Source of the DNA: Cenarchaeum symbiosum A
GTDB taxonomy: Archaea; Thermoproteota; Nitrososphaeria; Nitrososphaerales; Nitrosopumilaceae
Length of the DNA: 64,000 bases
Reading direction: 5' to 3'
Assembly (NCBI GenBank): GCA_000200715.1
Contig: DP000238.1
Coordinates: 1,598,849-1,662,848 of the forward strand
The position numbers were made by a program, and so were the translations under genes. Every line of letters begins with the position of its first letter. Within the stretch, counting starts at the first letter, position 1. Positions 25,189 to 42,721 of this stretch are shown piece by piece. The notes beneath the pieces are model-generated. The model worked only from the letters and a program-made list of their open reading frames with translations. It ran no database searches and was not told the DNA's origin.

Positions 25189-26616
25189 TTGGAGGACATT
25201 CGAATGAGGCTGCTGGTTCCGGATAACTCGGTACTGTGGACATCATCGGGGCTTTGCCTTGGGAGGGACTTGACATATGGCACGGAGATCTATACCGTGG
25301 ATGCCGATGACAACCTGCACCTGCATCCCATAATGGAGGAGCCCGACGATCCGGAAGAATTCAGGACCTGCACCATGCTAACAAAAGCCGGCACCCACAC
25401 ATCAATACCGGTATACAGGATAGGCGGGGGCGCCGGAGCACCTGTCATAGGACAGGTAAATGAAGAAGATATCATCGAGCCCGTGGAAGACAAGCATGTA
25501 AGAAGCTTCATAGCTGCACAAAACGAAGCTGCGGCGGGGCTTGCCGAGAGAGCCCCACTGTCCGCCATTGGGGCCTATTACCTGGGAAGATCGGGGCTGA
25601 AGCCCAACAAGGAGGCCCTCTATTTTGCAAGCAGCAGCATGGAGTCGGCTGCGCGTTTGGCCAGAGAGATGCAAGATAATCTAGTGCCAGAATTTGGTGG
25701 AGAGGTATCTATTATGCAGGGAATAGTAAGGCTAGGTTATGGAAAACAGGAGGCACGACACATTACTTTGTACAGGTCCGACCGCCTCTACAAACTCCGC
25801 TGCAGGATTAATCTTAGAGAGGGCAAAATCAGCAGTGCGGTGTACGCATGGGGCATGGGCATACTCTACCAGTTCCTGCGCGGTTTGTTTGAATCAGGAC
25901 TCGAGTACCACTTGGATGCGTTTACTAGAGGGGCCGGAGGTGAGAGATATGCAGTGCTGAATGTTCCCTGGAACTCACCCACTAGAAATCTACTCCAGTC
26001 GTCGTGTCATTTGTGGAAGAAGTACAGACTTTCCATGTTCAAGACCAAGCACCAGAGAAGCGTGGGGGAAGTGAAAGTTGAGCCGTACTCGGCAGGCGAC
26101 AGCGACTGGACTGTGCTGGAAATAAAGCGGCACGTGGCGAGATGTCACGAAATAGAGGTTCCCGATGAACATTCCGTCATCATCGACAACATGATCGTGA
26201 GACCCGTGAAGCTTACAGAGGACATACTAGATGAGATCACCTCTGACTGGGAGGACAAACAGGAACAAGGGCAGGATCTCGCCGTACTAAGAAGGAAGAT
26301 TAATTCTGTAGCGGCACTGGATACAATAGTCAAGCCAATCCGGGAGGCTGTCCATGGAAAGAGTGGTATACATACGGTGGGAATAATAAAGAACGTTAGC
26401 AAGGCCATAGAATCCAGCACCAGATATGGACTTACAAAATACGCCTTCGTTATTCTACGCGATGATACCGGGGAGGTCAAGATGAAACTGTGGGGCGAGC
26501 TGGCTGATAATGTCGCCGAGGGGGACATACTAGAGATCTCGGGAGCCTATACCAGAAACGGCATACTCAATAATTCCATGGATGGGCATGCCGTGGTAAT
26601 AGATCCCGATAAGTGA
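25189..26616 (+). CDS. Intein-derived domain fused to an RPA-like OB fold
   Basis: 475 residues. The C-terminal ~80 residues (about 396-470) form an RPA/aspartyl-tRNA-synthetase-type OB fold ('TVGIIKNVSKAIESS', 'FVILRDDTGEVKMKLWGE', 'DILEISGAYTRNG'), so single-stranded nucleic acid binding is likely. The first ~340 residues follow the order of an intein: a Hint-like start ('PDNSVLWTSSGLCLG', 'LTYGTEIYTVDADDN', residues 11-42), LAGLIDADG-like helices 'SAIGAYYLGRSGL' (125-137) and 'FLRGLFESGLEY' (229-240), then Hint block F/G ('ARCHEIEVPDEHSVII', 317-332). The nucleophilic Cys1, the terminal His-Asn and the LAGLIDADG acidic residues are missing, so it should neither splice nor cut. Start could be the Met6 codon (ATGAGGCTG). 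The 3' end faces the DISARM-like operon. Confidence 0.7.
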   Translation: MEDIRMRLLVPDNSVLWTSSGLCLGRDLTYGTEIYTVDADDNLHLHPIMEEPDDPEEFRTCTMLTKAGTHTSIPVYRIGGGAGAPVIGQVNEEDIIEPVEDKHVRSFIAAQNEAAAGLAERAPLSAIGAYYLGRSGLKPNKEALYFASSSMESAARLAREMQDNLVPEFGGEVSIMQGIVRLGYGKQEARHITLYRSDRLYKLRCRINLREGKISSAVYAWGMGILYQFLRGLFESGLEYHLDAFTRGAGGERYAVLNVPWNSPTRNLLQSSCHLWKKYRLSMFKTKHQRSVGEVKVEPYSAGDSDWTVLEIKRHVARCHEIEVPDEHSVIIDNMIVRPVKLTEDILDEITSDWEDKQEQGQDLAVLRRKINSVAALDTIVKPIREAVHGKSGIHTVGIIKNVSKAIESSTRYGLTKYAFVILRDDTGEVKMKLWGELADNVAEGDILEISGAYTRNGILNNSMDGHAVVIDPDK

Positions 26617-26752
26617 GACGAAATCGTTATCTTCCTGTCATAAGCGTGCAATGTGGAAACTACCCTGTTATGCAGAGTAACGATTTCTAATCGACGGGGT
26701 TTGATCAGTGTTGTAGTTTGGTTGTACATCGATCCGAAGGTCCGTATCAAGT
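26617..26752. other. Convergent spacer with a 10 bp inverted repeat
   Basis: GAAATCGTTA at 26620-26629 and its exact complement TAACGATTTC at 26678-26687 enclose 48 nt between two convergent genes. It may be a terminator for both, a small RNA, or the edge scar of the island. Confidence 0.4.
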
Positions 26753-28597
26753 CTATATTCCGTGATATTCCCGGAATTCCTGATAGCCAAGCTTGACCGC
26801 ATCGTTATTGTACATGAATATATTATCCTCAACCGTTACTATTGTACAGCGGTTGCCCTCTCTGCCACCGAATTCCTCTCCACGAAGACCCCTGCCGACC
26901 ATCTGTTGATAAGCCACAACACTGGTAGTTGGCCTAGCAATTACCACCATGTCTATCTTGGGCGAATCGAACCCGGTCGATAGCACATTATAATTACACA
27001 TTACTTGAATTTTGCTATCATCAGGACCGTTGAAAATATCCACGAACATCTTTCTTACAGAGTGTCGGGTTTCTGATGTGATGCACACGCTTCCCACATC
27101 TTCTTCTTCTAAAATCCGTGCCATGGCATTGGACTGAGACACATTTGGTCCGAAATAGAGAATTTTTTTATTATTACGGGCCTCCTTTAGTACATAATCT
27201 TTGATGAGGCGGTTCCGTTCTGCCATTATGGCCACACCTCTCATCCATTTGTCATTACCTCGTTTCAAATAAGCCGAATTTTCCATATCCAGCTTGACAT
27301 CACCCACTCCGATAGAGACAAATTCTGCATCTGCAAGATACTTCCATTGTGTGAGTTTTTTCCTCATATAATCCATATTCTGCCAGTTGTCATCAAAGGA
27401 TACTCCCCTCTCAGCAGAAGGACTGAACTTCTGGCACGGATATACTGTGTTATTTCGATACATGTTGTGTAATTTTCTGGTCCCCCCTGGTTCTTTCCGT
27501 TCCGGGGTCGCCGATAGGCCGATAAGTGGAATTCTGGAATCATTCTCTGTCTCTGACCCTGACCGTGAAAGGCCAAGATGCTCCAGCACCTCAACGTATG
27601 ATGGTGCAATCGAATGGTGTGCTTCGTCGATTATAATGGTGGATAAATTCTCACGAAGTGAATCCAGTTTTTCACTAGAGGCACTGAGCTTTTGAATGCT
27701 TGCCACAATTATGCCATGTTCATCATATACAGGTAAATCATTATCACCCCATGTGCGGTAGATATTTAGAATTCCGCCCTTGCCATATCTTTCCCAGATC
27801 TGCTTAAAACATACAACAGCTTGCTCGCACACTTCTTGCGTATCAGCAATCCAGAGTATGTTTTTGTCCGGTCCGGACTGGTTAAGCAGAGCAACGGCAG
27901 CCTCCACCACCATTCTAGTCTTCCCCGATCCCGTAGGCAAGGACACAATTGCCCTCCCGCCCCTACTTTGCAGGATCTGCAGTACTTGAGCCCGCATGTT
28001 CAACTGGAAGTTCTTAAGCGGTTTGATCTCTGATATTGGTATAACTTCTTCCGTTCTAGACGGCCTTGGATCACTGGGCAAACCAGAAAAGATAGACGAT
28101 ATGCGCAAAGCCCGTACAAACTCCCTTGCATACCGGCGTCCCGGACGCCAAGAATGTGCTCTGTGGTCCATAAGTTTTCTATGGTATTTTTTTGATTCTG
28201 TTACCCTATCCTCAAAAAATGCCCTTTTGATTCCGTCGTGTTCTTCTTCACTTACATTGATTGCACTGTGGTAAATACTATGTATATCGTCATACCTTTC
28301 CGTAGCAAGTAATTTGTTCAGTATCTCATCTCTTAACTTAATACCCATGCTCCCCTCAAAGATCTCTGTACCGAACATGTTGACAAGGACCTGTGGGAGT
28401 TTGGAGTTTTCTATTTCTCTCGCAGCCTCATCTATATTGGTTGCAAGTATACTTTCCAGTCCCGGTGATCTGTCCTCTAGATGTTCACGTAGGAACTTGG
28501 CCGCATCTCTATCATTGCCTGAATTAAAAATCTCGCTTAGGACCTTTCCAGCAATCTTCTTTTCTTCCTTAGTTGGCACAAGCCTCCTTTCAACCAT
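26753..28597 (-). CDS. DEAH-box SF2 helicase of the DISARM-like operon
   Basis: 614 residues. After a helical N-terminal domain of ~190 residues comes a two-lobed SF2 helicase: Walker A PTGSGKT (221-227), DEAH (324-327), motif III LSATPER (361-367) and motif VI 'QMVGRGLRG'. It resembles the helicase part of type III/type I restriction subunits and XPB-like proteins, but no nuclease motif is visible. It is the last gene of the operon; its ATG shares 1 nt with the stop of the PLD gene. Canonical class 2 DISARM does not have this gene, so it may be the local replacement for an accessory subunit. Confidence 0.88.
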   Translation of the reverse strand: MVERRLVPTKEEKKIAGKVLSEIFNSGNDRDAAKFLREHLEDRSPGLESILATNIDEAAREIENSKLPQVLVNMFGTEIFEGSMGIKLRDEILNKLLATERYDDIHSIYHSAINVSEEEHDGIKRAFFEDRVTESKKYHRKLMDHRAHSWRPGRRYAREFVRALRISSIFSGLPSDPRPSRTEEVIPISEIKPLKNFQLNMRAQVLQILQSRGGRAIVSLPTGSGKTRMVVEAAVALLNQSGPDKNILWIADTQEVCEQAVVCFKQIWERYGKGGILNIYRTWGDNDLPVYDEHGIIVASIQKLSASSEKLDSLRENLSTIIIDEAHHSIAPSYVEVLEHLGLSRSGSETENDSRIPLIGLSATPERKEPGGTRKLHNMYRNNTVYPCQKFSPSAERGVSFDDNWQNMDYMRKKLTQWKYLADAEFVSIGVGDVKLDMENSAYLKRGNDKWMRGVAIMAERNRLIKDYVLKEARNNKKILYFGPNVSQSNAMARILEEEDVGSVCITSETRHSVRKMFVDIFNGPDDSKIQVMCNYNVLSTGFDSPKIDMVVIARPTTSVVAYQQMVGRGLRGEEFGGREGNRCTIVTVEDNIFMYNNDAVKLGYQEFREYHGI

Positions 28598-29364
28598 TAT
28601 TTATCAATCCTAACAAAGTATTCTTCCTTGATCATACCGTCAATTAGATCTGCCATACGTCCCGCCGCAGGACCACGCACAAGAAGACCCAATTCAAAAT
28701 TGACTTCGGTCCCCAGCCCAGTAAGATTTGCTGAGCCCACCAGCATCTCTCGCCTGCCCACTACTATGACCTTTGCGTGCATCTTATATTTTCCATAATC
28801 TTTTTCTTTCCGGGCATATATTGTAGGACGCATGAGCTTTCCCTTCGGAAAGCACTTGCTCAGTTCTCTATCGTTGACGCTACTGCTATCCACCACCAAG
28901 TCCACCAAGATACCTGTCTTAAGACATGAATTGAGCTCTTGTATTATGCTTGCTGCTCCGTGGGTAATACGGTAACCCACTATCAACACTCTTTCACCTC
29001 TCTTTGCAGATTTTAGTAGTTCCACTATGACCGGCTCAGTATTACGAGTGCCAGAACTTGTGCTGCTTGGACCGGTCCAAATAATTTCAGTGCCGCTGGA
29101 TTCTGCCAATGCGAGGGTCTTTGTAGAATTCCATGCTGTCAACACCGAGTAAACTAATTCATCGTCAATCATTGGATCTGATATAATCCTCACCAGGCGT
29201 TCTGCTTTATCTCCGTAAATACCGGCTACCTCTCCAATATTATACCTAGTCATCTCAGCACCAGAATCCCATGCTGACAGGAGTTTTTGGATTGCAGGTT
29301 GGGGCAGATCATGTACTGCACCAAGAATTCTGTCTGCAGTGCTCCTTAGGTGAACCGTGTCCAT
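28597..29364 (-). CDS. drmC: PLD-domain protein, DrmC-like
   Basis: 255 residues of the phospholipase D superfamily with one HKD half-site: HAK at 196-198 (KMHAKVIVVGRREMLVG) followed by SAN at 211-213 and Asn/Glu in 'NFELGLLV'. A single half-site implies dimerisation to build the active site. The N-terminal ~80 residues are helical, as in DrmC. Position after a DUF1998 gene and DrmA-like helicase matches DISARM drmC; in characterised DISARM DrmC is dispensable or partly so. It overlaps drmB by 19 nt, which suggests translational coupling. Confidence 0.88.
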   Translation of the reverse strand: MDTVHLRSTADRILGAVHDLPQPAIQKLLSAWDSGAEMTRYNIGEVAGIYGDKAERLVRIISDPMIDDELVYSVLTAWNSTKTLALAESSGTEIIWTGPSSTSSGTRNTEPVIVELLKSAKRGERVLIVGYRITHGAASIIQELNSCLKTGILVDLVVDSSSVNDRELSKCFPKGKLMRPTIYARKEKDYGKYKMHAKVIVVGRREMLVGSANLTGLGTEVNFELGLLVRGPAAGRMADLIDGMIKEEYFVRIDK

Positions 29365-31142
29365 TTTTTGAAGAATCCGGCCTCGTCGGACCTAAGAGTT
29401 TTCACCACAAGTTCCCTGTCAAGTAGATTGTTCATGGATTCACAGCACGTTTCTGGGAGTAGTGTGCATGCATGACAAGCTGCACCCACCATCCGTGGCA
29501 TCTTCTTGGCCTCCTGCATCGAGCATAATGGATCGCACGAACATGTAGCTGAACCGTCTAATCCGTCTTCCAATATTCTCCATATCCGGTTACTATTCCT
29601 GTTACCCAGACCTGTGAGACCACCCAGAGAACCGTCACTGCTAGAGGATGCAGTGTAGATGAGTATTCCTGCCATGTCCTTGTCACAGTAGATCCTTTCT
29701 TTAAGCGATGCGGTGGTATACCCGGCATTACGTGCTATACTTCTGATTATCATATGTGAAAGTGTGTGGAGAAATATGTATTTTGGACTGTACTGGACAT
29801 CCTCTAGTTTCAAATTATCAATGTTGGGGATTGTCATGAGATCGCTAAATCTGTCCCGCACAACCTCAGTCCGCTGCCAGTCCTCCATCGCATTATTTTG
29901 AAAGCTCATGAAAATTCCCTCCCCAATATTTTCAGAGACTGGTAGCCATTCAATTCTCCCTTTTCCAACCGGAGATACCCGTCTCTCGTTAGGATCAAAT
30001 GGTTCCAGTCTCGTAAAACCAGTTACAGCGGATACTATTCTAATGCTCTTGGCCAGTACTCCCCTTTTCACAAGCGCAAGGGATGCAGGTTTATTTTCCA
30101 GTGTTTCAATCTGTAACACACCTTCAGTTATCCTATCCCCCGAGTCAAGCGCACCAAACTCAATCCGCCGTATATCCATCTTATCATCGAGTTTTTCTAT
30201 CAAGCCTATTCTTTCTTTCACATCTTTTGAAGTCCAGCGGCCCTCGGGATTGTCGGTTGTTTTTAGTCTGAACTGAACTTCAAGCCACACATCGAAGTTT
30301 TTAGTATTGTTACGAGTAGAAATTATCTCTCTATTTTGGTAGATCATCTGCGCTAATTCATCCCCAAAGCGCGGAATTGTAACTGCTCTGCGTATAAGCG
30401 GAAAATACATGTTCGTGGCTCCCTTGAAAATGCCCTGCATGACAACCTGTCCCTTATCACTAGTACAGTCTCCACCTGCATCATCTAGCCAAGGCCTGCG
30501 CCCAGAGCAGTATACCTTTATTCCCCGCAAGCCATTTTTAGATAGTGAACCGCCCATGCTCCTCGAAGCACCGCAGGAATGATTCCTACATTCCAAGATA
30601 GTAGAATCCAGAGATAGTGACTTGTAGTTATTAATTAGATAAAGCTGCGCCTTATTTTCAGGACATTTGTTTCGTTCTTCTTCGGTCCTATGAGCCCAAC
30701 GGTACCATGGAAATTCATCGAGATGTCCGTTTGCACATACTGCCACATATCTAACTGGGAAGATCTTAGAAGGCGCGATATGCTCCTTACTTGTGCATTC
30801 TATAGAGATACATTTCGTTTTCAACCCTCTCTCATTTCTCTTCTGTAGCTTCTTGCAGCTGGAACAATATCCCCATATTGGAAAACTTTTAACAGGTATC
30901 TGCCCTGGATGGTCTGGATCTTGATGTGATGATATTGATACTAATTGTGTAAGATCTTTCAGGGTATTTTTTCTAATCTCCCGTAGCAGTAATTCCTCTG
31001 TTATGGGATGAAACTCCTCACTCTTCCATCGATTGAGCCCCATTATTATCATGGAATCAATCTGGTTGTCATAGATGGATCCGGGTCCAAATACTCCAGT
31101 AACCTGACTAGGGCGAATTTGGTTGGACAGTGGATAAGTCAT
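29346..31142 (-). CDS. drmB: DUF1998 protein, DrmB-like
   Basis: 598 residues. The DUF1998 signature is at the C-terminal side: LHTLSHMIIRSIA (458-470), 'MAGILIYTASSSSDGSLGGL' and a cysteine cluster 'CSCDPLC' followed by 'CHACTLLPETCC'. An earlier pair (CSSC near residue 94) may bind zinc too. In DISARM, DrmB works with the DrmA helicase as the core complex that senses and acts on incoming DNA. It is sandwiched between drmA (stop/start abut) and drmC (19 nt overlap). Amino-terminus 'LSNQIRPSQVTGVFGPGS' is typical of DrmB-like proteins. Confidence 0.9.
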   Translation of the reverse strand: MTYPLSNQIRPSQVTGVFGPGSIYDNQIDSMIIMGLNRWKSEEFHPITEELLLREIRKNTLKDLTQLVSISSHQDPDHPGQIPVKSFPIWGYCSSCKKLQKRNERGLKTKCISIECTSKEHIAPSKIFPVRYVAVCANGHLDEFPWYRWAHRTEEERNKCPENKAQLYLINNYKSLSLDSTILECRNHSCGASRSMGGSLSKNGLRGIKVYCSGRRPWLDDAGGDCTSDKGQVVMQGIFKGATNMYFPLIRRAVTIPRFGDELAQMIYQNREIISTRNNTKNFDVWLEVQFRLKTTDNPEGRWTSKDVKERIGLIEKLDDKMDIRRIEFGALDSGDRITEGVLQIETLENKPASLALVKRGVLAKSIRIVSAVTGFTRLEPFDPNERRVSPVGKGRIEWLPVSENIGEGIFMSFQNNAMEDWQRTEVVRDRFSDLMTIPNIDNLKLEDVQYSPKYIFLHTLSHMIIRSIARNAGYTTASLKERIYCDKDMAGILIYTASSSSDGSLGGLTGLGNRNSNRIWRILEDGLDGSATCSCDPLCSMQEAKKMPRMVGAACHACTLLPETCCESMNNLLDRELVVKTLRSDEAGFFKKWTRFT

Positions 31143-34100
31143 TTAATTATCGTACCTCAATAGAAGGTGTCTTTCCACATCTCTCAGTGACTCGGGCGTG
31201 CTTATCGGAAACATGTCGGTGCCCTGCCTTCCGGCTTTTGCAAATTCAACAATCAGGGGGGTATCAGAACTTTTTTTCCAACGGGTATAGCACACCGCTC
31301 CCATTTTATTACGGATAAGCTTAACCCATTCCTCCTTGAATACATCCAGCATACTCTTGAAGTCTTTGTATACGGGTGAATCTTCATGTGTTTGTTCAAT
31401 TGATTTGAACCGTTCCAAGATAAACTTAGTGGCTTCCGCACCGTCCTCTATTCTAAATCTGCTTGCATCCTTATTTTTAGCCAATGTTTCAACAGATAAA
31501 CGCATCATTGTCATGAATACTGGACGAAGGCCGCGTCTACAGGCAGGAGGGGAGAACGGAGTCAGTGTGGTCGGTTCAACTTGTTTTTGCATGGTATTGT
31601 GGAATCCATTGAAGTTCTCATAATGTGAAAGATCCCTGACCTTATGTGGATTGAATAGGGTAAAAACGCAACCAGGTGAGTCTTTTTTTCTGCCTATCCT
31701 TCCAGCTACCTGTATGTATTCAGTAACCGATTTAGGTTGGCCCACGATTGTCAATAACGAAAGTCGATTTATATCAATTCCAACAGAAATCATGCTTGTT
31801 GCAAGAAGTACAGATATTTCCTCGCCAGTTCCTAAGGGTTTTTCAATTTTAGCCCTTATGGTGTTTATTTCTCTCTGGGTCCTCCTTCCGGTCAGTTCTT
31901 CTATACCATTACCGGGAGTTCCAATGTCTCGTCTTTTATCCCCATTGCCATACTCATGTTCCGCTAGAAATCCCAGATTCGTATTTACATCGTCTTCAAT
32001 TAATCTATTTGAGCCCCCTAATTCCCTGTTGCTGTTATAATATCCAACTAGTGTCCAATAAGGGTCCACCAACTCGGACGAAGAGCCTGATCTGAGTGAT
32101 GAATGTACAGTGTGTAATAGAACGGAATAGAGTTTAGCCAACGAGTACTTGGTAGATTTATGTGAGAATGATACGCCTACAAAAATTTTGCCGGGACCGC
32201 TGCCAACTCCCCACCAAGACAGAGAATGATCTCTATTTATTCCCGGAGGGGGGAACGTTTGTACTGTGGATAAGTCGAAGAGTCTACGTATTTGCTCGGT
32301 TGCCCCTCTAGCAGTGGCTGTTGCAGCAATTACTTTCGGCCGTAAATTGTTTTTATCGCGAGTAAGAAAATCCACTGCGGTTTCGTACAATCCAACCATT
32401 GTACCGAGAGGGCCAGATATGAGGTGGAGCTCATCTTGGATTATTAAGTCAGGTGGAAATATTTCATCAACATCTCGAATGAATTCCCCTGTATGATGTC
32501 TTGTATCAGCACAATACTTGGGTGTTTCTTTAGACTGGAAACCGTGTAAATCACATTTTTTATATGGACGGCCAAGAATATTGGCTATGGTGCTCTTGAA
32601 GGGCATCCGAGCAAATTTATCGACGGTAGCAATGATCATGGAGGGACAACGAGCATACACATCTGTATCCACGGTTACTAATGGAAGTACCCTAGAGGGG
32701 TCAAATTTGTTATCGGTAAACTTGCAACCACTAGTATCATTTGTACAGCGCACCATAGTCCACTTTGTACCATCTGCATCGTATCGATAGTTGTTCGGTC
32801 CTACCTTATGACCGCACCATGGACAGTAATATGTCTGCCAAGGGGACCCCCTTTCTAGATGTTCGTCCTGGCTATTGCTTAGAGTGCGGAGGGCCTTTGA
32901 TGAATCCTCGTGGTCGTTAGGCGTCAGGCTGCCACCTACCCACAACCCGAGAAGGAATGGATCCTTGCCCAACCCTGTTATACTCCGGTCCCTCCGCAAC
33001 ACCTCCAATGCACATACCAGTGTTGAGGCCCTTTCAAACTGCTGGAGTGTCAGTAACCTTAGCGTGTATCGCATTATGACAGAAACGCCCAACCCATCCT
33101 CAATTCCTCCCCTTAACCGTCTTAGAATCATGACAAATGCAGCCGCCCCTAAATATGCCTCGGTTTTACCACCCCCTGTGGGAAACCAAATAAGATCGGC
33201 AATAGAGTTATCCTTGTGTTTTTTTGATACGAGTCCACTCAACGACATCAATATGAAAGCAATCTGAAATGGGTACCATTTCACATCTCCTGGGGCTGGT
33301 TTTGGCCATGGAAATTTAGATTTGGGATTTTTAAATTTATTTAGCGCATATTTGAAATGTATTTTCTGATAAAGCATTGCTCTATTGGTAAGTATGAATG
33401 ACTTAAGTATTATTTTACTTGTATCATCCTTGCCCTCGACGAGTAATTTAAGACCGGCAGACATCCTGTTCAGGACCCTGGTACATTCATCCATGTTTTT
33501 TTTTGCGATTGTTCTATACCTGTTGGTAATGGACTCATTTTCACCTTCCGACATGTTATCTACGCTCTGAGTAAATTCTTTTTCTACTATTTTATTCTGT
33601 TTTGTGATCCATCGTTTGTACTTATCAATCAGAGGAGACAGTATAGCTTCAATTTTCTTCTGATTATTTTCATGATCTTCTAGATTGCCAACCCAACCTA
33701 GTGCATACATGTCAACATCTTCAGGCTTATCTACATCGTCAATTTTTGCAAAAGTTTCATGAAATATGGGCATGAATGTGGTTCTAACATAAACAGGTGG
33801 GTTCTGCTTATCCCATTCAGCAGCACAACCATAACCAATTCCAAAGGTTTTTTTATCTCTATAAATTAATTCGAGTTTCTCCTCTTCATAGTTATCTGAA
33901 AATGGATTATCATAAACCGGCTTAAATGTATTATTTTCCAATGATCGAAGCTCTATCAACGGCTGAAATATACAGTTCTCTTCGTTGTGAACTTTAGTCT
34001 CAGCATAGCTGCTACCAGATCTATCCCAACTAATCCATTCCGTGTTGTTCTCCAAAAATATGTTTAGAGTGGAATTTTTATCATTTTTCCACCATATCTT

Positions 34101-34553
34101 CGCTTCAGTTTGTCCCTCTTCTGGTATTCTGATCTCACCTTCATCTTGTGTAAGGTCAATTTGGAATAAGTTGTTTTTATCTAGTGGGCGCCTAGTCCAA
34201 TTACCATCCTCATTGCGTACATATTTGGCATAATTTACAACTGCTTGAATCCGACTTGTTCCATCTTTCAAACGTACCCTAAGGCCCATAGAACTAGGCC
34301 TAAAGAAAGCGGTAGATTGCTGATCTATGTTTGGATCCTCGTCCTCCTTGTCAGCCTCATCCCCCTTTTCCATATCCAATTCATCTAGGGCTGCGCTTTT
34401 TGGAAATAGTATTCCAGACGCATACATATCCAGCGGCCTATTTCCCGCTGTGAGTGTCTCATTGACGCTACCAGGGCCCACAAAGAACCGGTGTGCCTCT
34501 TCCACCAGCCCCGTGTTAATCTTTTCAGCGGACACTTGTTGCCACCCTTTCAA
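31143..34553 (-). CDS. drmA: DrmA-like SF2 helicase
   Basis: 1136 residues. A ~420-residue N-terminal region precedes the helicase core: Walker A PTGGGKTEAYLG (458-469), 'MRYTLRLLTLQQFERA', DELH (707-710), 'VIAATATARG' (motif III) and VAGRIGRKK (motif VI). Between the first motifs is a zinc-like insert with CPWC (577-580) and further Cys. This long helicase preceding a DUF1998 gene is the diagnostic DrmA arrangement. DrmA-DrmB loading on DNA ends is the core of DISARM. Its start overlaps the GHKL gene by 29 nt. Confidence 0.9.
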   Translation of the reverse strand: MKGWQQVSAEKINTGLVEEAHRFFVGPGSVNETLTAGNRPLDMYASGILFPKSAALDELDMEKGDEADKEDEDPNIDQQSTAFFRPSSMGLRVRLKDGTSRIQAVVNYAKYVRNEDGNWTRRPLDKNNLFQIDLTQDEGEIRIPEEGQTEAKIWWKNDKNSTLNIFLENNTEWISWDRSGSSYAETKVHNEENCIFQPLIELRSLENNTFKPVYDNPFSDNYEEEKLELIYRDKKTFGIGYGCAAEWDKQNPPVYVRTTFMPIFHETFAKIDDVDKPEDVDMYALGWVGNLEDHENNQKKIEAILSPLIDKYKRWITKQNKIVEKEFTQSVDNMSEGENESITNRYRTIAKKNMDECTRVLNRMSAGLKLLVEGKDDTSKIILKSFILTNRAMLYQKIHFKYALNKFKNPKSKFPWPKPAPGDVKWYPFQIAFILMSLSGLVSKKHKDNSIADLIWFPTGGGKTEAYLGAAAFVMILRRLRGGIEDGLGVSVIMRYTLRLLTLQQFERASTLVCALEVLRRDRSITGLGKDPFLLGLWVGGSLTPNDHEDSSKALRTLSNSQDEHLERGSPWQTYYCPWCGHKVGPNNYRYDADGTKWTMVRCTNDTSGCKFTDNKFDPSRVLPLVTVDTDVYARCPSMIIATVDKFARMPFKSTIANILGRPYKKCDLHGFQSKETPKYCADTRHHTGEFIRDVDEIFPPDLIIQDELHLISGPLGTMVGLYETAVDFLTRDKNNLRPKVIAATATARGATEQIRRLFDLSTVQTFPPPGINRDHSLSWWGVGSGPGKIFVGVSFSHKSTKYSLAKLYSVLLHTVHSSLRSGSSSELVDPYWTLVGYYNSNRELGGSNRLIEDDVNTNLGFLAEHEYGNGDKRRDIGTPGNGIEELTGRRTQREINTIRAKIEKPLGTGEEISVLLATSMISVGIDINRLSLLTIVGQPKSVTEYIQVAGRIGRKKDSPGCVFTLFNPHKVRDLSHYENFNGFHNTMQKQVEPTTLTPFSPPACRRGLRPVFMTMMRLSVETLAKNKDASRFRIEDGAEATKFILERFKSIEQTHEDSPVYKDFKSMLDVFKEEWVKLIRNKMGAVCYTRWKKSSDTPLIVEFAKAGRQGTDMFPISTPESLRDVERHLLLRYDN

Positions 34554-36720
34554 TATTTGGGAAGGTAAGCCTGATCAATGCACCGCCGTCGACAGATATG
34601 GCTTCCGCCTTCCCCTCATAATGCTCCATGATCTTTCGTACTATGTATAGTCCCAAACCATGACCGTGTAATTGCCTGTTGTCTTGCAAATGACCAAATT
34701 TGAACGGCTCAAAGATCTCCTCCAGTTTAGACTCCGGTATGCCCCTGCCTGTATCTGCAAAATCTATGTGTAGGTTATGATTATGATGCCAGTAATGGAG
34801 TGTAATCTCTTTTTTGTCGGTAGTCGATTTTTCTATTGACTCTATTGAATTCATGTATAGGTGCGTGAGTATTGAATCTAAATCAATTGGATCTAACTTT
34901 ACCACGAGCTGACTTTTAGCTTCTCTATTGTGGGGATTGGACGAATCAGTCTTAATCACTATGCTCAAATCCCTGCACTTGTCTTCAAATCCCTTGGCCA
35001 CTGACTGCCAACATTCTAATATGTTGACTTGTTCAAATGATTTATCACTTACAATGGATTTTGATATATGATCGGTCATAACAGACACAAACTTCATGAA
35101 ATGTAGCATCCTGGCTTGGTTGTCCTCCATCTGATCCAGCATTTCCTTTGTCCTAGTAGTTTCATCTTCTGTGAGACCTCCGCTACGAGACAAAATTGCT
35201 TCACGTATCTGGGCTCCCTCATTTAATAGATCCATATTGGCTTCTAGAGGATCAGTCACGTGTCGCGCCATAAATGATGCGGCAATCCCCAAGGTAATCA
35301 AGTTTTTTTCATAGCTCTTTATCTCATCTGTTTCCGTTGTTAATATTTCCGCTTTTTCTTGCAGGACGTCTATTACATTGAGAAGCCCGTCGCTGGATAA
35401 TTTTATTTGTCGCTTTTCATCGGGGCTATTCCCACGGGTATTGTTTTTTATGTTAACCACCATTTGCTTGGCTGTTTCTGGATCCGGTTCTTTGTCATCT
35501 ATTTTTAATTTTTTAATTTCTTCCTCTTTCCAATGCTTCATATACTCGGCAAAAATATTTATCATAATACGCATAATCTTCTGTAAATCATCGAATTCTT
35601 TATTGTCATCCAGTGTTTCCCTGTGTGCTGCAGGCTTAATCATAGGATTGTTTGACTTGGTAAGGTGCACTATCCCATAAATTTGCTTCAGGCCTATCCT
35701 GCTTGTCTCTTGTCTTGCACGTGCTTCCAACGTCAACCAGTCTTTTTCACCCCCGTATGGTCTCAGCCATACCCCGTCTCTATAGATGTAAATACCATGA
35801 TTGTACTTTAGAAACTCCTCCATTTTCTTAATTCCAATCTTATGATTGTAATACTGTTCAATATCCGTGGTTTTGCGCTTACCGGGAGCACGAGGAAAAT
35901 GATAAATATCCACAGAAAATGGCCCTATATTGGTGACAGGGCAGCTATCTGCTACATCCTGTTTTTTCCACTCGTTTTGTTTTGCAACTGACTGCATTAT
36001 GTCTACGAACAAATGATTTCCATCAAATACAGAGCGCATCTTGAAAGGCGCATTATTAATTATCTCCTCGCGTAGTTTTACATCATTTCTTCCAACTATC
36101 TCTCCTTTTTCATCTCCATCACTTATTCTGATCTTAATATCATCAAAATTTTTCTTTGAAATAAAAGTGCTGATCTCACTCTTAAGTTTGTTTATTTTCT
36201 TTGAATCCCATGTAGATTTTAGCTTTTTCAAATTTAATCGTACGCCGTTATTGAGATTGGCAGTGTCGGTGATCTTCCTCTCGAACTTTACTTCATTAAC
36301 AGTGATGCCGGGTTTTTCAAATGCGGACCAATCAAATTCCATCCATACCAGTTTGCCATTTTTTACTGCATTTAGTTCTGTCACTGTGCCTAATCTCTGG
36401 CATGCTAGCCTACCAATACCCATTTCACCCCAAACAGCTTTACCGTCACTCGTCTTTGTATCCCGTAGACGAGAATCAGTTCCAATAACCATCCACTTAG
36501 TTTCTATGTCTTCATTAGACATCCCATCCCCGTCGTCACTAATTTCTATCTCAGTAGATCCATATCGTAAATTCTTAAATTTAATTAGAACGTTTTTGGC
36601 ATTTGCGTCACGAGAATTCTTGATCAGTTCAAACATAGCTGTGAAGTCAGAGGTAATAGACTTGCTGCCAAAGTAGTCCATTGTTCTTGCATCAAAAGTG
36701 AATCCAATACTATCAGTCAA
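34525..36720 (-). CDS. Protein with two GHKL ATPase domains
   Basis: 731 residues with an unusual double layout. N-terminal GHL-type ATPase (Hsp90/MutL/MORC-like): N-box ELIKNSRDAN (31-40), G1 DDGDGM (62-67), G2 'GEMGIGRLA' (98-106), then a transducer-like domain with 'YIYRDGVWLRPYGG' and a conserved-type Lys in 'QIYGIVHLTKS'. Middle helices (~445-560) include 'LGIAASFMARHVTDPL' (477-492), a degenerate histidine-kinase DHp helix in which the phospho-acceptor position is Arg. C-terminal histidine-kinase ATPase: N-box HLYMNSIESI (620-629), DTGRG (656-660), GHGLGL (686-691). GHL ATPases of this kind occur beside restriction-modification genes in bacteria. Co-transcribed with drmA. Confidence 0.87.
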   Translation of the reverse strand: MTDSIGFTFDARTMDYFGSKSITSDFTAMFELIKNSRDANAKNVLIKFKNLRYGSTEIEISDDGDGMSNEDIETKWMVIGTDSRLRDTKTSDGKAVWGEMGIGRLACQRLGTVTELNAVKNGKLVWMEFDWSAFEKPGITVNEVKFERKITDTANLNNGVRLNLKKLKSTWDSKKINKLKSEISTFISKKNFDDIKIRISDGDEKGEIVGRNDVKLREEIINNAPFKMRSVFDGNHLFVDIMQSVAKQNEWKKQDVADSCPVTNIGPFSVDIYHFPRAPGKRKTTDIEQYYNHKIGIKKMEEFLKYNHGIYIYRDGVWLRPYGGEKDWLTLEARARQETSRIGLKQIYGIVHLTKSNNPMIKPAAHRETLDDNKEFDDLQKIMRIMINIFAEYMKHWKEEEIKKLKIDDKEPDPETAKQMVVNIKNNTRGNSPDEKRQIKLSSDGLLNVIDVLQEKAEILTTETDEIKSYEKNLITLGIAASFMARHVTDPLEANMDLLNEGAQIREAILSRSGGLTEDETTRTKEMLDQMEDNQARMLHFMKFVSVMTDHISKSIVSDKSFEQVNILECWQSVAKGFEDKCRDLSIVIKTDSSNPHNREAKSQLVVKLDPIDLDSILTHLYMNSIESIEKSTTDKKEITLHYWHHNHNLHIDFADTGRGIPESKLEEIFEPFKFGHLQDNRQLHGHGLGLYIVRKIMEHYEGKAEAISVDGGALIRLTFPNIERVATSVR

Positions 36721-36812
36721 ATGAGTGCTCGCCTCCGTAAAATAACGCTTGTGCGATCATTCGATCGTGAAAATATGCTCCAAGAGGGGGACAGTGCATT
36801 ATGCAAACCACG

Positions 36813-37790
36813 TCACCGCGCATACTCCATAAGGGTAATGCGGCGTCTCCCGTTGATCATTGTTTTAGTTATTTCTTTTGCGATGGAACTGACCACTGGA
36901 ACCACAACCGCATTTCCAAATTGGCGGTACGCCTGAGTATCCGACACGGGTATCTTGAAACGCCGGGGAAAGCCCATAAGCCGTGCACATTCTCTAGGAG
37001 TAAGCATTCGCGGAATACGGCGCCGACCGCGATTAATAAGAATCTCTGAACCATCTTTGTAGTACCTCCTGCTTAACGTCCTAGTCACACCATCCGGGTC
37101 AGCAATTCCGTAGCCGAATCCTGCCCCCCTAGCACGGCATGCCTCCTTATGCCGCTTCAAGGCAGCCCACACTCCGGGTGTCAACACATATTCGCTACCG
37201 GGATCAGGCTCTAATATGTCCCTCAATCTAGGCTTGGCATTCTTCATTTTGGGGAACTCGAACTCCACCTCACGGTCAAACCCTACGATGAATAACCTCT
37301 CCCGGTGTTGCGGCACAACTGTCTTTGCGTCAATTATGGCATGTTTTACATCATAACCCACATCATGCAGCCGCCTTAGCATCACTTTGAAGGTCCTGCC
37401 ACCATCATGTGATTGGAGGTGTTTTACATTCTCTAAAAGAAATCCACGGGGGCGCTTCTCCCTGAGTATATTTAATATGTTGTCAAAGAGTCTCCCCTCC
37501 GGAGAGTCAAAGCCAGATGGCTGGCCCAGACTGTTTCTTTTGACTACACCTGCCAATGAAAATGGCTGACAAGGAAAACCCGCGGCAAGAACATCATGAT
37601 TAGGTATGCTCCCCGCATCCACCTCAGTAATATCTTTGTCGGTGACCGGTTCAAAATTTGCTTCATATGTCTTTCTTGCAGGTTCGTTTATCTCACAAGA
37701 ATACACGCATCTACCCCCTGCTCTTTCTAATCCAATCCTCATGCCACCAATGCCGCAGAATAGATCGATAAACCGGATTTCTTTGCCCAT
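36813..37790 (-). CDS. DNA (cytosine-5) methyltransferase, DrmMII-like
   Basis: 325 residues, complete m5C methylase: motif I 'FIDLFCGIGGMRIGL' (7-21), motif IV GFPCQPFS with catalytic Cys74, motif VI ENVKHL (120-125), motif VIII 'PQHRERLFIVGF' and motif X 'FGNAVVVPVV'. The target-recognition region is about residues 195-270. In class 2 DISARM such a methylase marks host DNA as self. It is the first gene of the minus-strand operon, 92 nt before the GHKL gene, and divergent from vsr across 52 bp. The recognition site cannot be read from the sequence. Confidence 0.93.
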   Translation of the reverse strand: MGKEIRFIDLFCGIGGMRIGLERAGGRCVYSCEINEPARKTYEANFEPVTDKDITEVDAGSIPNHDVLAAGFPCQPFSLAGVVKRNSLGQPSGFDSPEGRLFDNILNILREKRPRGFLLENVKHLQSHDGGRTFKVMLRRLHDVGYDVKHAIIDAKTVVPQHRERLFIVGFDREVEFEFPKMKNAKPRLRDILEPDPGSEYVLTPGVWAALKRHKEACRARGAGFGYGIADPDGVTRTLSRRYYKDGSEILINRGRRRIPRMLTPRECARLMGFPRRFKIPVSDTQAYRQFGNAVVVPVVSSIAKEITKTMINGRRRITLMEYAR

Positions 37791-37842
37791 ATCAAGTGCT
37801 ACTCATTGATAATTAATTAATATTACTATGCTACCCTAATTT
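37791..37842. promoter_or_regulatory. Divergent AT-rich promoter region between methylase and vsr
   Basis: 52 bp containing AATTAATTAATATTA (37811-37825), close to palindromic, centred ~25-30 nt from both start codons. It probably drives both the methylase operon and vsr, allowing coordinated expression. Confidence 0.5.
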
Positions 37843-38325
37843 TTGGAATCAATGACAGATGTATTTACGCCTGAAAAACGGTCATGGGTGATGTCCCGTA
37901 TAAGAAGCAAAGGTACCGGCATCGATATTAAAATGAAGGAGATCCTCACTCACACGGGGATCAAATTTGAAATGTATCCTCAAATACCTGGAAATCCGGA
38001 CTTTGCAAGCCGTCGGCTGGGGATTACGGTGTTCTGTGATGGTGATTTTTGGCACGGATATGACTACCGAAGGGGAAAAATTCCCAAGAAACAGTTCTGG
38101 AGGAACAAGATAGAATGTAACATGGAACGTGATCTATATGTATCAGGGATGCTACGCAGTAACGGATGGTCGGTTCTCCGGTTCTGGGAGCATGACATAG
38201 ACGGCAATCCGGACAAGTGCTCCGGGAAGATACAAAGAAAGATCAGGGAGAGGTCGGCTAGGCGCGGATCTAAACAGTCAGGCCGGGGATCCGGCCGGCG
38301 GGCAGCAAGGCATGATTCCCGATAG
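37843..38325 (+). CDS. vsr: Vsr-type very-short-patch repair endonuclease
   Basis: Up to 160 residues; start is TTG 37843 or ATG 37852. Vsr nicks 5' of T in T:G mismatches left when 5-methylcytosine deaminates. Family features: 'SWVMSRIRSKGT', the catalytic Asp53 in GNPDF, 'FCDGDFWHGYD' with His71, 'FWRNKIECNMERD' and 'NGWSVLRFWEHDI'. The zinc-binding cysteines of the E. coli enzyme (CFWHHHHC) are replaced (DFWHGYDY), as in many restriction-linked Vsr proteins. Placement beside an m5C methylase fits its repair role; a nicking role in defence is also possible. Confidence 0.9.
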   Translation: MESMTDVFTPEKRSWVMSRIRSKGTGIDIKMKEILTHTGIKFEMYPQIPGNPDFASRRLGITVFCDGDFWHGYDYRRGKIPKKQFWRNKIECNMERDLYVSGMLRSNGWSVLRFWEHDIDGNPDKCSGKIQRKIRERSARRGSKQSGRGSGRRAARHDSR

Positions 38326-39617: not shown

Positions 39618-42386
39618 TTATTCGGGGCAGCCGTCATCGTCCATGTCCCCGTCATAGTCTTCTGCGTTAAAGGGGCATACATCCAGGTCGTCTATCACCC
39701 CGTCAAGATCCCCGTCAGGCGCAAAGCGCTGCTGTTCCGGCACGATATCGGGGCAGCCGTCGCCGTCCCTGTAATCGTTCCAGGTCTCTGCGTTGTCGGG
39801 GCAGCGGTCTATGTCATCGGGTATCGTGTCAAGGTCAGAATCAGGGACTATCCTGCTTGGGGCCTCCGAGGGCTGTACATCGGGGCAGCCGTCGCGGTCA
39901 AGGTAGCCATTGAGGGTCTCCGGCTCGTCCATGCACTGGTCCCACCTGTCATCCACGCCGTCATTGTCCGCGTCGGGGAATGAAAACTCGGCAGTCTGGC
40001 CAGGCACTGAATCGGGGCAGCCGTCATCGTCAAGATACCTGTTGTATTTCTCGGGCATGGTGGGGCACTGGTCCACATCATCGGGAACGCCGTCCTGGTC
40101 CCTGTCGGTGGATGCCAGCCCGCTGTCGGGGCAGCCGTCCATGTCCTGGAAGCCGTTGATCGTCTCCGCCCGGGTGGGGCACGTATCAAGCAGATCGTTT
40201 AGCCCGTCTCCATCTGTATCAGAGACCCTGCCCCCGTTGCTCACAAAGTCGGGGCAGCCGTCCTCGTCCTGGAAGCGGTTGTACCTCTCCGGGCTCTCCT
40301 TGCACTCGTCTTTATCATCGGGGATCCCGTCGCCGTCAAAGTCGCCAAACGTCTCATATTCCTCAAGGTCGGGGCAGCCGTCATCATCCTGAAAGCGGTT
40401 GTACCTCTCGCCTGCCAGGGGGCAGAGGTCGTCCTCGTCTGGTATGCCGTCAGAATCAAGGTCAGAGGGCATCCCGCCTGTGACGCCCCGTATGTCTATG
40501 CAGCCGTCATGGTCAAGGTATCCGTTAAAGTTCTCGCGCTCGCCCAGGCACTGGTCCCACCTGTCATCCACGCCGTCCTCGTCAGCATCTGGAAAGTTGA
40601 ACTGCATGGACTGGACGGTCACGGTATCCGGGCAGCCGTCTGTATCCTCAAAGCGGTTGAACTTTTCGGGCTGGTTGGGGCACTCGTCAAAGTCCCCGGC
40701 TATGCCGTCGCCATCGGGGTCTGTAATATCGTCAAATGTATCGGGGCAGCCGTCGAGGTCCAGTATCCCGTTTATCACCTCGGGCTGGCCGGGGCAAAGG
40801 TCCGTAAAGTCGTTGATCCCGTCGCCGTCCGTGTCAGCGGTAGCAGACTGGGTCGAGATGGTGTCTGGGCAGCCGTCTGTATCCTCGAACTTGTTATAGG
40901 TCTCGCTTGATAGCATGCACCTGTCCACATTGTCCGGTATGCCGTCAAGGTCCGCATCGCCCATGGATTCGAGTATCAGCACGTCTGGGCATCCGTCCTC
41001 GTCCCTGAACCCGTTGAACCTCTCGGCTACTGTCGGGCACTGGTCTGCATCATCTGGAATGGTATCAAAGTCGGTATCAAGCGGGGCAGAGGCCATGTTC
41101 CCTCTCACGTCGGGGCAGCCGTCATCGTCAAGGTACGCGTTATAGTTCTCCTGCTCGTCGATACACTGGTCCCACCTGTCGTCTATGCCGTCGCCGTCGG
41201 TATCATCGAATACAAAGTTCGGCTCTTGGATCAGAACTGTGTCGGGGCAGCCATCGCTATCCTGGAACATGTTGAACTTTTCTGGCTCGTTGGGGCACTC
41301 GTCGAGCATGCCGGCTATGCCGTCGCCGTCAGGGTCTGTAATGTCGTCAAACCTGTCTGGGCAGCCGTCAAGGTCCAGGACCCCGTTTATCACCTCTGGC
41401 TGTCCGGGGCATAGGTCTATCACGTCGATTATGCCGTCGCCGTCTGTGTCGGCTGTGACCCTTTCAGATGCCACATTGTCTGGGCAGCCATCCTCGTCTT
41501 GAAACTTGTTGTAGGTCTCGGGCGCAAAGGGGCATTCGTCAAGGTGGTCCCTTATGCTGTCGGAATCAGAATCGCCCATGGATACAAAGTTGGGCGTATC
41601 TGGGCAGCCGTCTTCGTCTTCAAACTTGTTAAAGTTCTCGCGCTCGGTGGGGCATGCGTCTGCCGTGTCCGGTATGGTGTCAAAGTCTGTATCCATTGCG
41701 CCTGTTGCATCGTTGGCCTCCACGTCGGGGCAGCCGTCCCAGTCAAGGTATCCGTTAAAGTTCTCCCGGACATCTGTGCACTGGTCCCACCTGTCGTCTA
41801 TGCCGTCGCCGTCGCCGTCAGGGAATCTATAGGTCGAAGATACCTCAGGTGCAGTGTCGGGGCAGCCGTCCGTATCCTGGAATAAATTATAGGTCTCTTG
41901 TTCAAACTCGCAAGAATCGGCCGTATCGGGGACGCCGTCCTGGTCTGAATCGATGGCCATCATTTCATCATCGGGGCAGCCGTCAAGGTCTAGCAGGCCA
42001 TTGAAGGTCTCTGGCTGGCCGGGGCAGAGATCAGCTGTATCTATGAAGCCGTCATCGTCGCTGTCATGTGTTACCCTCTCGCCGCCAGGGGGAGAATCGG
42101 GGCAGCCGTCGCCATCAAGGAACCTGTTGTAGATCTCCTTTACCAGCGGGCAGTCATCCTGATGGTCCTGGACCCCGTCAAAGTCCGTATCATACCAGGG
42201 GACAAAGTCCGACGGGCATCCGTCTGGTTCCCCCTCATAGTCCTCTCGGACAAACGGGCATTGGTCGACCTCGTCCAGTATCCCGTCGCTGTCAAGGTCG
42301 CCCTCGGCCGCAAAGGTGGTCATGGGGGCGGTGGTCATGGTTCCCACCATGAACAGCAGCATACCCAGCGCATAGCCCCTTCTCAT
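39618..42386 (-). CDS. Secreted thrombospondin type-3 repeat protein (large)
   Basis: 922 residues: a signal peptide (about 1-27, ending TTFAAEG), then 22 consecutive calcium-binding modules each closing with DGCPD or a close variant, with DxDxDGxxD loops and a second Cys in forms such as DECP. This is the thrombospondin type-3 / OmpA-linker repeat class, a stiff rod held by Ca2+ and disulphides. A higher-order period of ~205 residues is visible from four DDRWDQC modules (first near 197, second near 402). No membrane anchor or sorting motif is present at the C-terminus (ends DDDGCPE). It likely forms part of the cell surface or is released. Confidence 0.9.
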   Translation of the reverse strand: MRRGYALGMLLFMVGTMTTAPMTTFAAEGDLDSDGILDEVDQCPFVREDYEGEPDGCPSDFVPWYDTDFDGVQDHQDDCPLVKEIYNRFLDGDGCPDSPPGGERVTHDSDDDGFIDTADLCPGQPETFNGLLDLDGCPDDEMMAIDSDQDGVPDTADSCEFEQETYNLFQDTDGCPDTAPEVSSTYRFPDGDGDGIDDRWDQCTDVRENFNGYLDWDGCPDVEANDATGAMDTDFDTIPDTADACPTERENFNKFEDEDGCPDTPNFVSMGDSDSDSIRDHLDECPFAPETYNKFQDEDGCPDNVASERVTADTDGDGIIDVIDLCPGQPEVINGVLDLDGCPDRFDDITDPDGDGIAGMLDECPNEPEKFNMFQDSDGCPDTVLIQEPNFVFDDTDGDGIDDRWDQCIDEQENYNAYLDDDGCPDVRGNMASAPLDTDFDTIPDDADQCPTVAERFNGFRDEDGCPDVLILESMGDADLDGIPDNVDRCMLSSETYNKFEDTDGCPDTISTQSATADTDGDGINDFTDLCPGQPEVINGILDLDGCPDTFDDITDPDGDGIAGDFDECPNQPEKFNRFEDTDGCPDTVTVQSMQFNFPDADEDGVDDRWDQCLGERENFNGYLDHDGCIDIRGVTGGMPSDLDSDGIPDEDDLCPLAGERYNRFQDDDGCPDLEEYETFGDFDGDGIPDDKDECKESPERYNRFQDEDGCPDFVSNGGRVSDTDGDGLNDLLDTCPTRAETINGFQDMDGCPDSGLASTDRDQDGVPDDVDQCPTMPEKYNRYLDDDGCPDSVPGQTAEFSFPDADNDGVDDRWDQCMDEPETLNGYLDRDGCPDVQPSEAPSRIVPDSDLDTIPDDIDRCPDNAETWNDYRDGDGCPDIVPEQQRFAPDGDLDGVIDDLDVCPFNAEDYDGDMDDDGCPE

Positions 42387-42721
42387 TACACGGCTGGTTT
42401 TTTCCCGGAGTTATTAAACGTCACGCATGAAGTCTGTGCGCAAACGGTGTGTTTTCTCTGAAAACCTGTCCTGCCAAAGTGATCCAACGAGCCCTCCCGG
42501 CCCCCGATCCACCCCCTCAAAACCGGCCAGATGCAGGGGCCTGTCCCGTCCAAGATTCCCTGCAGACGGGCCGGCTGTTCCCGCAGATCCCGGGCTGCGG
42601 TAGAATGCCACGGTCAGCAATCGTTGTAGGTCAAAGTCCGCCGGGTGCAGCCTGCCGGCCATATTGTATCCTGACTTGGAAGAATAATGATGCGGATCAG
42701 GGCCAGCTGGAATCATGGGCC
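42387..42721. other. Intergenic region between the TSP3 genes
   Basis: About 335 bp. Apart from the TATA box at 42411-42419 I see no gene, tRNA or repeat. Confidence 0.5.
42411..42419 (-). promoter_or_regulatory. TATA box of the large TSP3 gene
   Basis: GTTTAATAA on the minus strand, ~28 nt before the ATG at 42386. A very similar TTATTAAA lies before the second TSP3 gene, and TTATTAAG before the 45637 start. Confidence 0.55.

What the first reader, a model, noticed from the sequence alone, without database searches (positions are those of the whole stretch)
26753..38325. DISARM-like defence locus with a double-GHKL ATPase, extra helicase and Vsr
Seen: minus-strand operon m5C methylase, two-domain GHKL ATPase, DrmA-like helicase (DELH), DUF1998 DrmB, single-HKD DrmC and a DEAH helicase, mostly with overlapping reading frames, plus a divergent vsr. 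Known: class 2 DISARM is DrmMII with DrmA, DrmB, DrmC and DrmE, and restricts phage DNA while methylating self. Inference: this archaeal operon keeps the core and replaces DrmE by a GHKL ATPase and a second helicase, with Vsr to repair or to nick. I know of no described system with exactly this set.
Basis: partly seen in the sequence, partly recalled or inferred. Interest (0 to 1): 0.92.

Follow-up and report, generated by a model that had tools for sequence, protein, structure and literature searches.

The report
DISARM variant with MORC-like ATPase
An archaeon carries a horizontally acquired antiviral (DISARM-type) operon in which the usual DrmE gene is missing and a MORC-like clamp ATPase plus an extra helicase sit in the operon instead, and nearly the same gene set recurs in unrelated Chloroflexota bacteria, so it looks like a real, undescribed DISARM subtype rather than an accident.

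Summary
Window 26753-38325 holds, on the minus strand, an m5C methylase (DrmMII), a two-GHKL ATPase, DrmA, DrmB, DrmC and a RadD/ResIII-type helicase, with a divergent vsr. The genes overlap or abut, and a sharp low-GC block (about 42-48% against 55-62% around it) encloses them. DrmE is absent here and in the whole genome.

The core is known: PADLOC already holds near-self DrmC and DrmMII profiles, so this is a DISARM. The new part is the gene set. In 82 of 88 full-length relatives, the two-GHKL protein is followed by a response-regulator-like gene. In only two is it followed by drmA: this window and a Chloroflexota genome. Chloroflexota genomes G492 and G628 carry methylase + glycosylase + the same helicase type + DrmB + DrmA, with the two-GHKL gene about 20 bp upstream of drmA; G799 carries a partial set. 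This genome has no REC domain at all, and the phospho-acceptor His of the ATPase is Arg. The ATPase half folds like MORC (Z 25.5).

Best reading: a DISARM variant in which a MORC-type DNA clamp replaces DrmE. Function is untested. Vsr most likely repairs m5C deamination.

The parts
26753..28597 (-). RadD/ResIII-type SF2 helicase (DEAH), 614 aa; last gene of the operon
   Evidence: PF04851 84 bits, PF00271 51 bits; NF053632 RadD 104 bits, far below its cut-off of 720; 34% identity to the helicase of Chloroflexota DISARM locus L199
28597..29364 (-). DrmC, PLD-like nuclease candidate with a single HKD motif degenerated to HxK(x4)G; overlaps the helicase by 1 nt
   Evidence: PDLC02615 508 bits, NF038319 111 bits; alignment A3
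29346..31142 (-). DrmB (OB/DUF1998-MZB partner of DrmA); overlaps drmC by 19 nt
   Evidence: NF038324 468 bits, cut-off 240; PF09369
31143..34553 (-). DrmA, YprA-family SF2 helicase (TGGGKT, DELH); overlaps the GHKL gene by 29 nt
   Evidence: PDLC02575 727 bits, NF038325 895 bits; profile of this family finds the solved DrmA 7s9v at 1257 bits
34525..36720 (-). Two-GHKL ATPase: residues 8-403 MORC-like ATPase clamp (GHKL + S5), 433-557 DHp-like helical hairpin, 560-724 histidine-kinase catalytic fold; Arg486 in place of the phospho-acceptor His
   Evidence: PF13589 79 bits, PF02518 90 bits; AlphaFold model and PDB comparison; H-box column
36813..37790 (-). DrmMII, m5C DNA methylase (PCQ and ENV motifs); first gene of the operon
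   Evidence: PDLC02653 666 bits, PF00145 283 bits
37843..38325 (+). Vsr-type mismatch endonuclease, divergent from DrmMII across 52 bp
   Evidence: PF03852 68 bits; aligns to E. coli Vsr 1cw0
26500..38000 (.). Low-GC block (mostly 0.38-0.50, one 500-bp bin 0.35) that encloses the operon; flanks 0.55-0.60 (slope at 25.0-26.5 kb); reads as one acquired unit
   Evidence: composition profiles

Best explanation
This is a horizontally acquired DISARM-type restriction system of a variant kind. Shown by sequence: the DrmMII-DrmA-DrmB-DrmC core is present, DrmE is absent, and its place between methylase and drmA holds a two-GHKL ATPase whose N-terminal half has the MORC clamp fold, with a RadD-like helicase at the end of the operon. 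Nearly the same set, with the ATPase gene directly upstream of drmA, recurs in Chloroflexota. Inferred mechanism: DrmMII marks host DNA with 5-methylcytosine; Vsr repairs the T:G mismatches that this mark produces by deamination; DrmAB loads on unmethylated single-stranded or 5'-overhang DNA of incoming replicons (as shown for Serratia DrmAB, PMC9142583). The MORC-type ATPase dimerises on ATP and closes as a clamp or loop-trapping motor on that DNA. It couples DrmAB to the second helicase, so that invading DNA is unwound, compacted or stalled; DrmC may cut but need not. The histidine-kinase half no longer signals by phosphotransfer in this archaeon and probably serves as a second ATP-dependent dimerisation module. 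Steps involving the ATPase and the second helicase are inference.
For: DISARM profiles. Overlapping genes inside one low-GC block. No DrmE_C in the genome. Of 88 distinct full-length two-GHKL proteins, 80 are followed by a REC-like gene by motif and 2 more by REC profile (L057, L058); only the window and G628 are followed by drmA (the motif's background rate in unrelated ORFs was 18%). Chloroflexota G492 and G628: DrmMII, HhH-GPD glycosylase, RadD-like helicase, DrmB, DrmA, two-GHKL about 20 bp upstream of drmA, nothing between; G799: DrmMII, helicase, DrmB, DrmA to the contig end. The window helicase groups with these and with that of another DISARM locus, L051, apart from MORC-PLD-linked helicases (90/82). 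One DrmA clade of the four RadD-bearing loci is not rejected (p-AU 0.238). No REC domain in the genome, while the same search rang in 12 of 14 control genomes; Arg at the His column (77 of 85 relatives with a residue there have His). MORC3/MORC4/MORC2 best by Z at residues 8-403. RadD-like helicases elsewhere sit beside MORC-type GHKL and PLD genes, which supports a helicase-GHKL functional link.
Against: Only a few loci show the arrangement, and all bacterial ones come from one Chloroflexota class. In G492 the ATPase gene is cut by the contig end, and in G628 the locus is split over two contigs. No plasmid among 72,556 has GHKL joined to drmA. DrmC is absent from the Chloroflexota loci and has a degenerate HKD motif here. 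The Chloroflexota ATPases keep the His-Glu box, so loss of kinase chemistry is not a rule of the variant. The two ATPases are only about 25% identical, and the trees have long branches. Nothing has been tested in cells.
Confidence: 0.66

Rival explanations
1. Two neighbouring systems: an m5C methylase-Vsr-two-GHKL restriction-modification module (paraMORC/HEF_HK type) that happens to abut a DISARM core, each working alone.
For: The Dcm-Vsr-two-GHKL-REC module is common without DISARM in the same phylum and in viral contigs. DISARM loci sit beside separate GHKL modules in L034, L189 and L209.
Against: Here the GHKL and drmA genes overlap by 29 nt, the REC gene of the module is gone, and the genome has no REC at all. 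The same replacement of REC by drmA occurs in Chloroflexota.
Confidence: 0.18
2. An ordinary DISARM of mixed class, with GHKL and helicase as dispensable accessories, as many DISARM loci carry variable extra genes.
For: DISARM loci surveyed here are highly modular: SNF2, UvrD, NERD-UvrD or no extra helicase; DrmE, PifA-like or other genes.
Against: The combination RadD-like helicase plus two-GHKL plus DrmA recurs in archaeon and Chloroflexota, and the helicases of these loci group together.
Confidence: 0.1
3. The two-GHKL protein is a sensor kinase that signals infection by phosphotransfer, as proposed for the HEF_HK/Response_reg_2 pairs.
For: HATPase_c and DHp-like fold; relatives pair with REC-like genes.
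Against: No REC domain in the genome and Arg in place of the phospho-acceptor His.
Confidence: 0.03
4. A decaying locus: formerly functional, now losing activity.
For: DrmC HKD motif changed to HKG; H-box His lost.
Against: All frames are open, overlaps are kept, and Walker, DExH, methylase and both GHKL motif sets are intact.
Confidence: 0.03

Closest known systems
DISARM class 2 (DrmMII, DrmA, DrmB, DrmC, DrmE)
   Same: DrmMII, DrmA, DrmB and DrmC by profile, as one operon; PADLOC holds near-self DrmC and DrmMII profiles
   Different: No DrmE; a two-GHKL ATPase in its place; an added RadD-like helicase and Vsr
HEF_HK / Response_reg_2 two-component-like systems with C5 methylase and Vsr (PMC8011034); paraMORC R-M systems (PMC2292703)
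   Same: Same two-GHKL architecture, same DNA partners (m5C methylase, Vsr)
   Different: The REC-like partner is missing and drmA occupies its slot; the phospho-acceptor His is Arg; no Pfam HEF_HK match was reported
Helicase-MORC-PLD cassettes linked to phosphorothioation genes (loci L061, L237-L241, L331 here), and PbeABCD (PMC6459918)
   Same: Related ResIII/RadD-like helicase beside a GHKL ATPase and a PLD protein; PbeA profile 46 bits
   Different: They use phosphorothioation genes, not m5C; their GHKL is single-domain MORC; no DrmA or DrmB
BbrUII/HgiDII-type GHKL restriction enzymes beside or inside class 1 DISARM (L075, L189, L034)
   Same: GHKL ATPase next to DISARM genes; in L075 directly upstream of drmA
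   Different: Different GHKL subfamily; class 1 operon with DrmD and DrmMI

Membership tests
DISARM | DrmA helicase and DrmB (DUF1998) as separate adjacent genes | tested here: met
DISARM | Associated DNA methylase (DrmMI or DrmMII) | tested here: met
   DrmMII PDLC02653 666 bits
DISARM | PLD-like DrmC | tested here: met
   PDLC02615 508 bits; HKD motif degenerate, HxK(x4)G
DISARM class 2 | DrmE | tested here: not met
   No DrmE_C or DrmE match in the operon; none in the genome; the same Pfam model does find DrmE in L052
DISARM class 1 | DrmD (SNF2 helicase) and DrmMI | tested here: not met
   No such match among the seven proteins
DISARM | Anti-phage activity with self-protecting methylation | not testable with these tools
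   Needs expression and phage challenge
HEF_HK/Response_reg_2 system | HATPase_c_3 plus C-terminal HK-like HATPase_c in one protein | tested here: met
HEF_HK/Response_reg_2 system | Conserved H-box His | tested here: not met
   Arg486; 77 of 85 relatives have His
HEF_HK/Response_reg_2 system | Adjacent REC-like gene | tested here: not met
   Next gene is drmA; no PF00072 in the genome
HEF_HK/Response_reg_2 system | Match to the Pfam HEF_HK model | tested here: inconclusive
   No hit, but the archaeal relative with a REC gene (L042) and the Chloroflexota protein gave none either
MORC/paraMORC ATPases | GHKL plus S5 ATPase module | tested here: met
   MORC3 5ix2 Z 25.5 over 301 residues; MORC4 and MORC2 follow; Hsp90-type also high
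RadD helicase (equivalog) | NCBIfam RadD model above cut-off | tested here: not met
   104 bits against 720
PbeABCD phosphorothioation defence | Phosphorothioation (dnd) genes at the locus | tested here: not met
   None among the operon's genes; a PAPS-reductase-like gene lies at another place in the genome

The most novel reading that the evidence does not exclude
A third kind of DISARM in which a MORC-type ATP clamp, taken from a two-component-like restriction system whose response regulator was replaced by DrmAB, and a RadD-like helicase form the effector in place of DrmE. It would be shared by archaea and Chloroflexota and link DISARM mechanistically to MORC chromatin compaction ATPases.
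Probability: 0.4. Interest if true: 0.75.

Novelty: new variant of a known kind. Interest (0 to 1): 0.6.

Why it matters
It is still unclear how DISARM stops phages after DrmAB loads, since DrmC is dispensable in tested systems (PMC9142583). A variant that recruits a MORC-type clamp points to DNA trapping or compaction rather than cutting, and this can be tested directly. It would also give a prokaryotic setting in which a relative of eukaryotic MORC silencing ATPases works with DNA methylation and helicases, as Iyer and colleagues predicted in general terms (PMC2292703).

Tried and rejected
(1) DrmE hidden in the GHKL or helicase protein: no DrmE_C match. (2) A REC partner elsewhere in the genome: none by PF00072. 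(3) GHKL-drmA joins on plasmids with two concatenated tblastn queries: none. (4) DrmA in phage records: none. (5) genome-contig scan with the ATPase: one relative only, L002, with a REC-like gene. (6) Closest viral relative of the helicase, L243: not DISARM in the part held; instead a 1568-aa protein with a ResIII helicase at its C-terminus and, by motif reading only (Pfam gave no GHKL match), a Hsp90/Sacsin-like GHKL start. (7) Repeats that might mark the ends of the island: only chance-level pairs; a tRNA-His gene lies about 1.9 kb outside the operon. (8) My first reading that the ATPase keeps the H-box His with Glu changed to Val was wrong: in the alignment Arg486 is at the His column and the His is one residue later. 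(9) Literature: no held paper joins DISARM with paraMORC, or 'DISARM system' with GHKL; 'DrmA' with 'MORC' gave only unrelated papers, and the one Cenarchaeum-DISARM hit is a chance word. The original DISARM paper (PMC5739279) is not held.
Full report
OBSERVATION. PADLOC, Pfam and NCBIfam identify DrmMII, a protein with HATPase_c_3 and HATPase_c, DrmA, DrmB, DrmC, a ResIII/DEAD helicase and Vsr. GHKL and drmA overlap by 29 nt, drmA and drmB abut, drmB and drmC overlap by 19 nt, drmC and the helicase by 1 nt; vsr is divergent by 52 bp. GC falls from 55-62% to about 42-48% between about 26.5 and 38.0 kb, so the operon reads as one acquired block. The vsr 3' end lies at its edge. The contig is 2,045,086 bases; from memory this is the size of the Cenarchaeum symbiosum A genome, an identification I did not test.

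WHAT IS ALREADY KNOWN. The DISARM core is not a discovery. PADLOC profile PDLC02615 scores 508 bits over 218 residues against this DrmC (self score 555 over 255 residues), and the DrmMII profile scores 666 (self 746). Such profiles most likely come from this or a nearly identical locus. DrmE is missing: no match among the operon's proteins or in the genome, although the same Pfam model finds DrmE in G184, a genome of the same phylum.

THE ATPASE. The two-GHKL protein belongs to a family described in bacteria as HK-like proteins with HATPase_c_3 (HEF_HK; PMC8011034) and related to the paraMORCs (PMC2292703). I collected 88 distinct full-length relatives, the window's own protein included. In 80 the next gene starts with a REC-like motif, and in two more (L057, L058) it matches a REC profile. 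Two run into a contig end and two have neither. In exactly two cases, the window and Chloroflexota genome G628, the next gene is drmA. The motif alone occurs in 18% of unrelated ORFs, so the count is far above chance. The genome has no PF00072 domain anywhere, while the same search rings in 12 of 14 control genomes. At the phospho-acceptor column 77 of 85 relatives have His; the window has Arg486. The AlphaFold model (mean pLDDT 76.5, 25 sequences) shows an N-terminal GHKL+S5 module whose best structural relatives are MORC3, MORC4 and MORC2 (Z 22-25.5 over about 300 residues; Hsp90 types follow at 21-22), a long helical hairpin, and a histidine-kinase catalytic domain. So this half is a MORC/Hsp90-class ATP clamp; function is inferred from the fold.

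RECURRENCE. In 400 Chloroflexota genomes, 46 have a strong DrmA. I read 36 loci. In G492 the end of a contig holds the C-terminal 362 aa of a two-GHKL protein 20 bp upstream of drmA, then drmB, then convergently a RadD-like helicase, an HhH-GPD glycosylase and DrmMII. A class-wide search with that helicase found orthologues in G628 (87%), G799 and G805 (79%). G628 has the full 735-aa two-GHKL protein 18 bp upstream of drmA at one contig end, and the rest of drmA, drmB, helicase, glycosylase and DrmMII on another; that the two ends join is inference. G799 has DrmMII, helicase, drmB and drmA up to the contig end; G805 looks like a remnant. Identities to the window are 34% for DrmA and helicase and about 25% for the ATPase. 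The window helicase groups with these, with the DISARM helicase of G319 and with a Bacillus one (90/82), apart from helicases of MORC-PLD cassettes. Holding the four RadD-bearing DrmA proteins as one clade is not rejected (p-AU 0.238); long branches limit both statements.

OTHER LINKS. RadD-like helicases elsewhere lie directly beside a single-domain MORC-type GHKL gene and a PLD gene in Mesorhizobium, Planktothrix, Treponema, Trichormus, Hymenobacter and Roseobacter plasmids, mostly near PAPS-reductase or dnd genes, and in this same archaeon at another place. GHKL genes of the BbrUII/HgiDII restriction-enzyme type are next to DISARM in L034 and L189, and directly upstream of drmA in L075. So GHKL ATPases have joined DISARM more than once.

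VSR. Vsr or an HhH-GPD glycosylase accompanies m5C methylases in this survey with and without DISARM; in L209 the glycosylase domain is fused to the methylase. The simplest role is repair of deaminated 5-methylcytosine, not restriction.

MECHANISM. For Serratia DISARM, DrmAB binds single-stranded and 5'-overhang DNA, its ATPase is stimulated by unmethylated and reduced by methylated DNA, and DrmC is dispensable (PMC9142583). I infer that here the MORC-type clamp joins DrmAB on such DNA and, with the RadD-like helicase, traps or remodels it. Homology, gene order, absence of DrmE and REC, and recurrence are shown; every functional step of the ATPase and the second helicase is inferred.

LIMITS. 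Two phyla were surveyed in depth; most bacterial loci are fragmentary; no functional data exist. Three held-library searches for DISARM with MORC/GHKL-type terms found no relevant paper, but most subscription papers, including the original DISARM paper, are not held.

Noticed in passing
G000:C1:592000-597000 (L331:5338-10613): Same genome carries a second, different cassette: PAPS-reductase-like gene, RadD-like helicase, MORC-type GHKL and a convergent PLD-like gene, as in phosphorothioation-linked cassettes of bacteria.
   Followed up: partly
L243:6632-11338: Viral-contig protein of 1568 aa with a ResIII helicase 33% identical to the window helicase at its C-terminus and, by motif reading only, a Hsp90/Sacsin-like GHKL domain at its N-terminus.
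   Followed up: partly
L199:3043-3753, L056:6601-7275, L209:4241-6175: DISARM m5C methylases are accompanied by, or fused to, an HhH-GPD glycosylase where other loci have Vsr: apparent non-homologous replacement of one repair function by another.
   Followed up: partly
L051:1554-14153 (G319, same family): A related DISARM has DrmA-DrmB-DrmC followed by a 1382-aa RadD-like helicase with HNH-repeat extension, next to an N6/N4 methylase and an MvaI/BcnI-type restriction enzyme.
   Followed up: partly
L075:1-11541: Viral contig with class 1 DISARM in which a PifA-like gene and a BbrUII/HgiDII-type GHKL restriction enzyme lie between DrmMI and drmA.
   Followed up: no
window 39618-44557 and 45689-49255: Very large secreted-looking proteins: two with repeated D-x-D-x-D-G (thrombospondin type 3-like) motifs, and a proline/threonine-rich protein in a separate dip of GC.
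   Followed up: no
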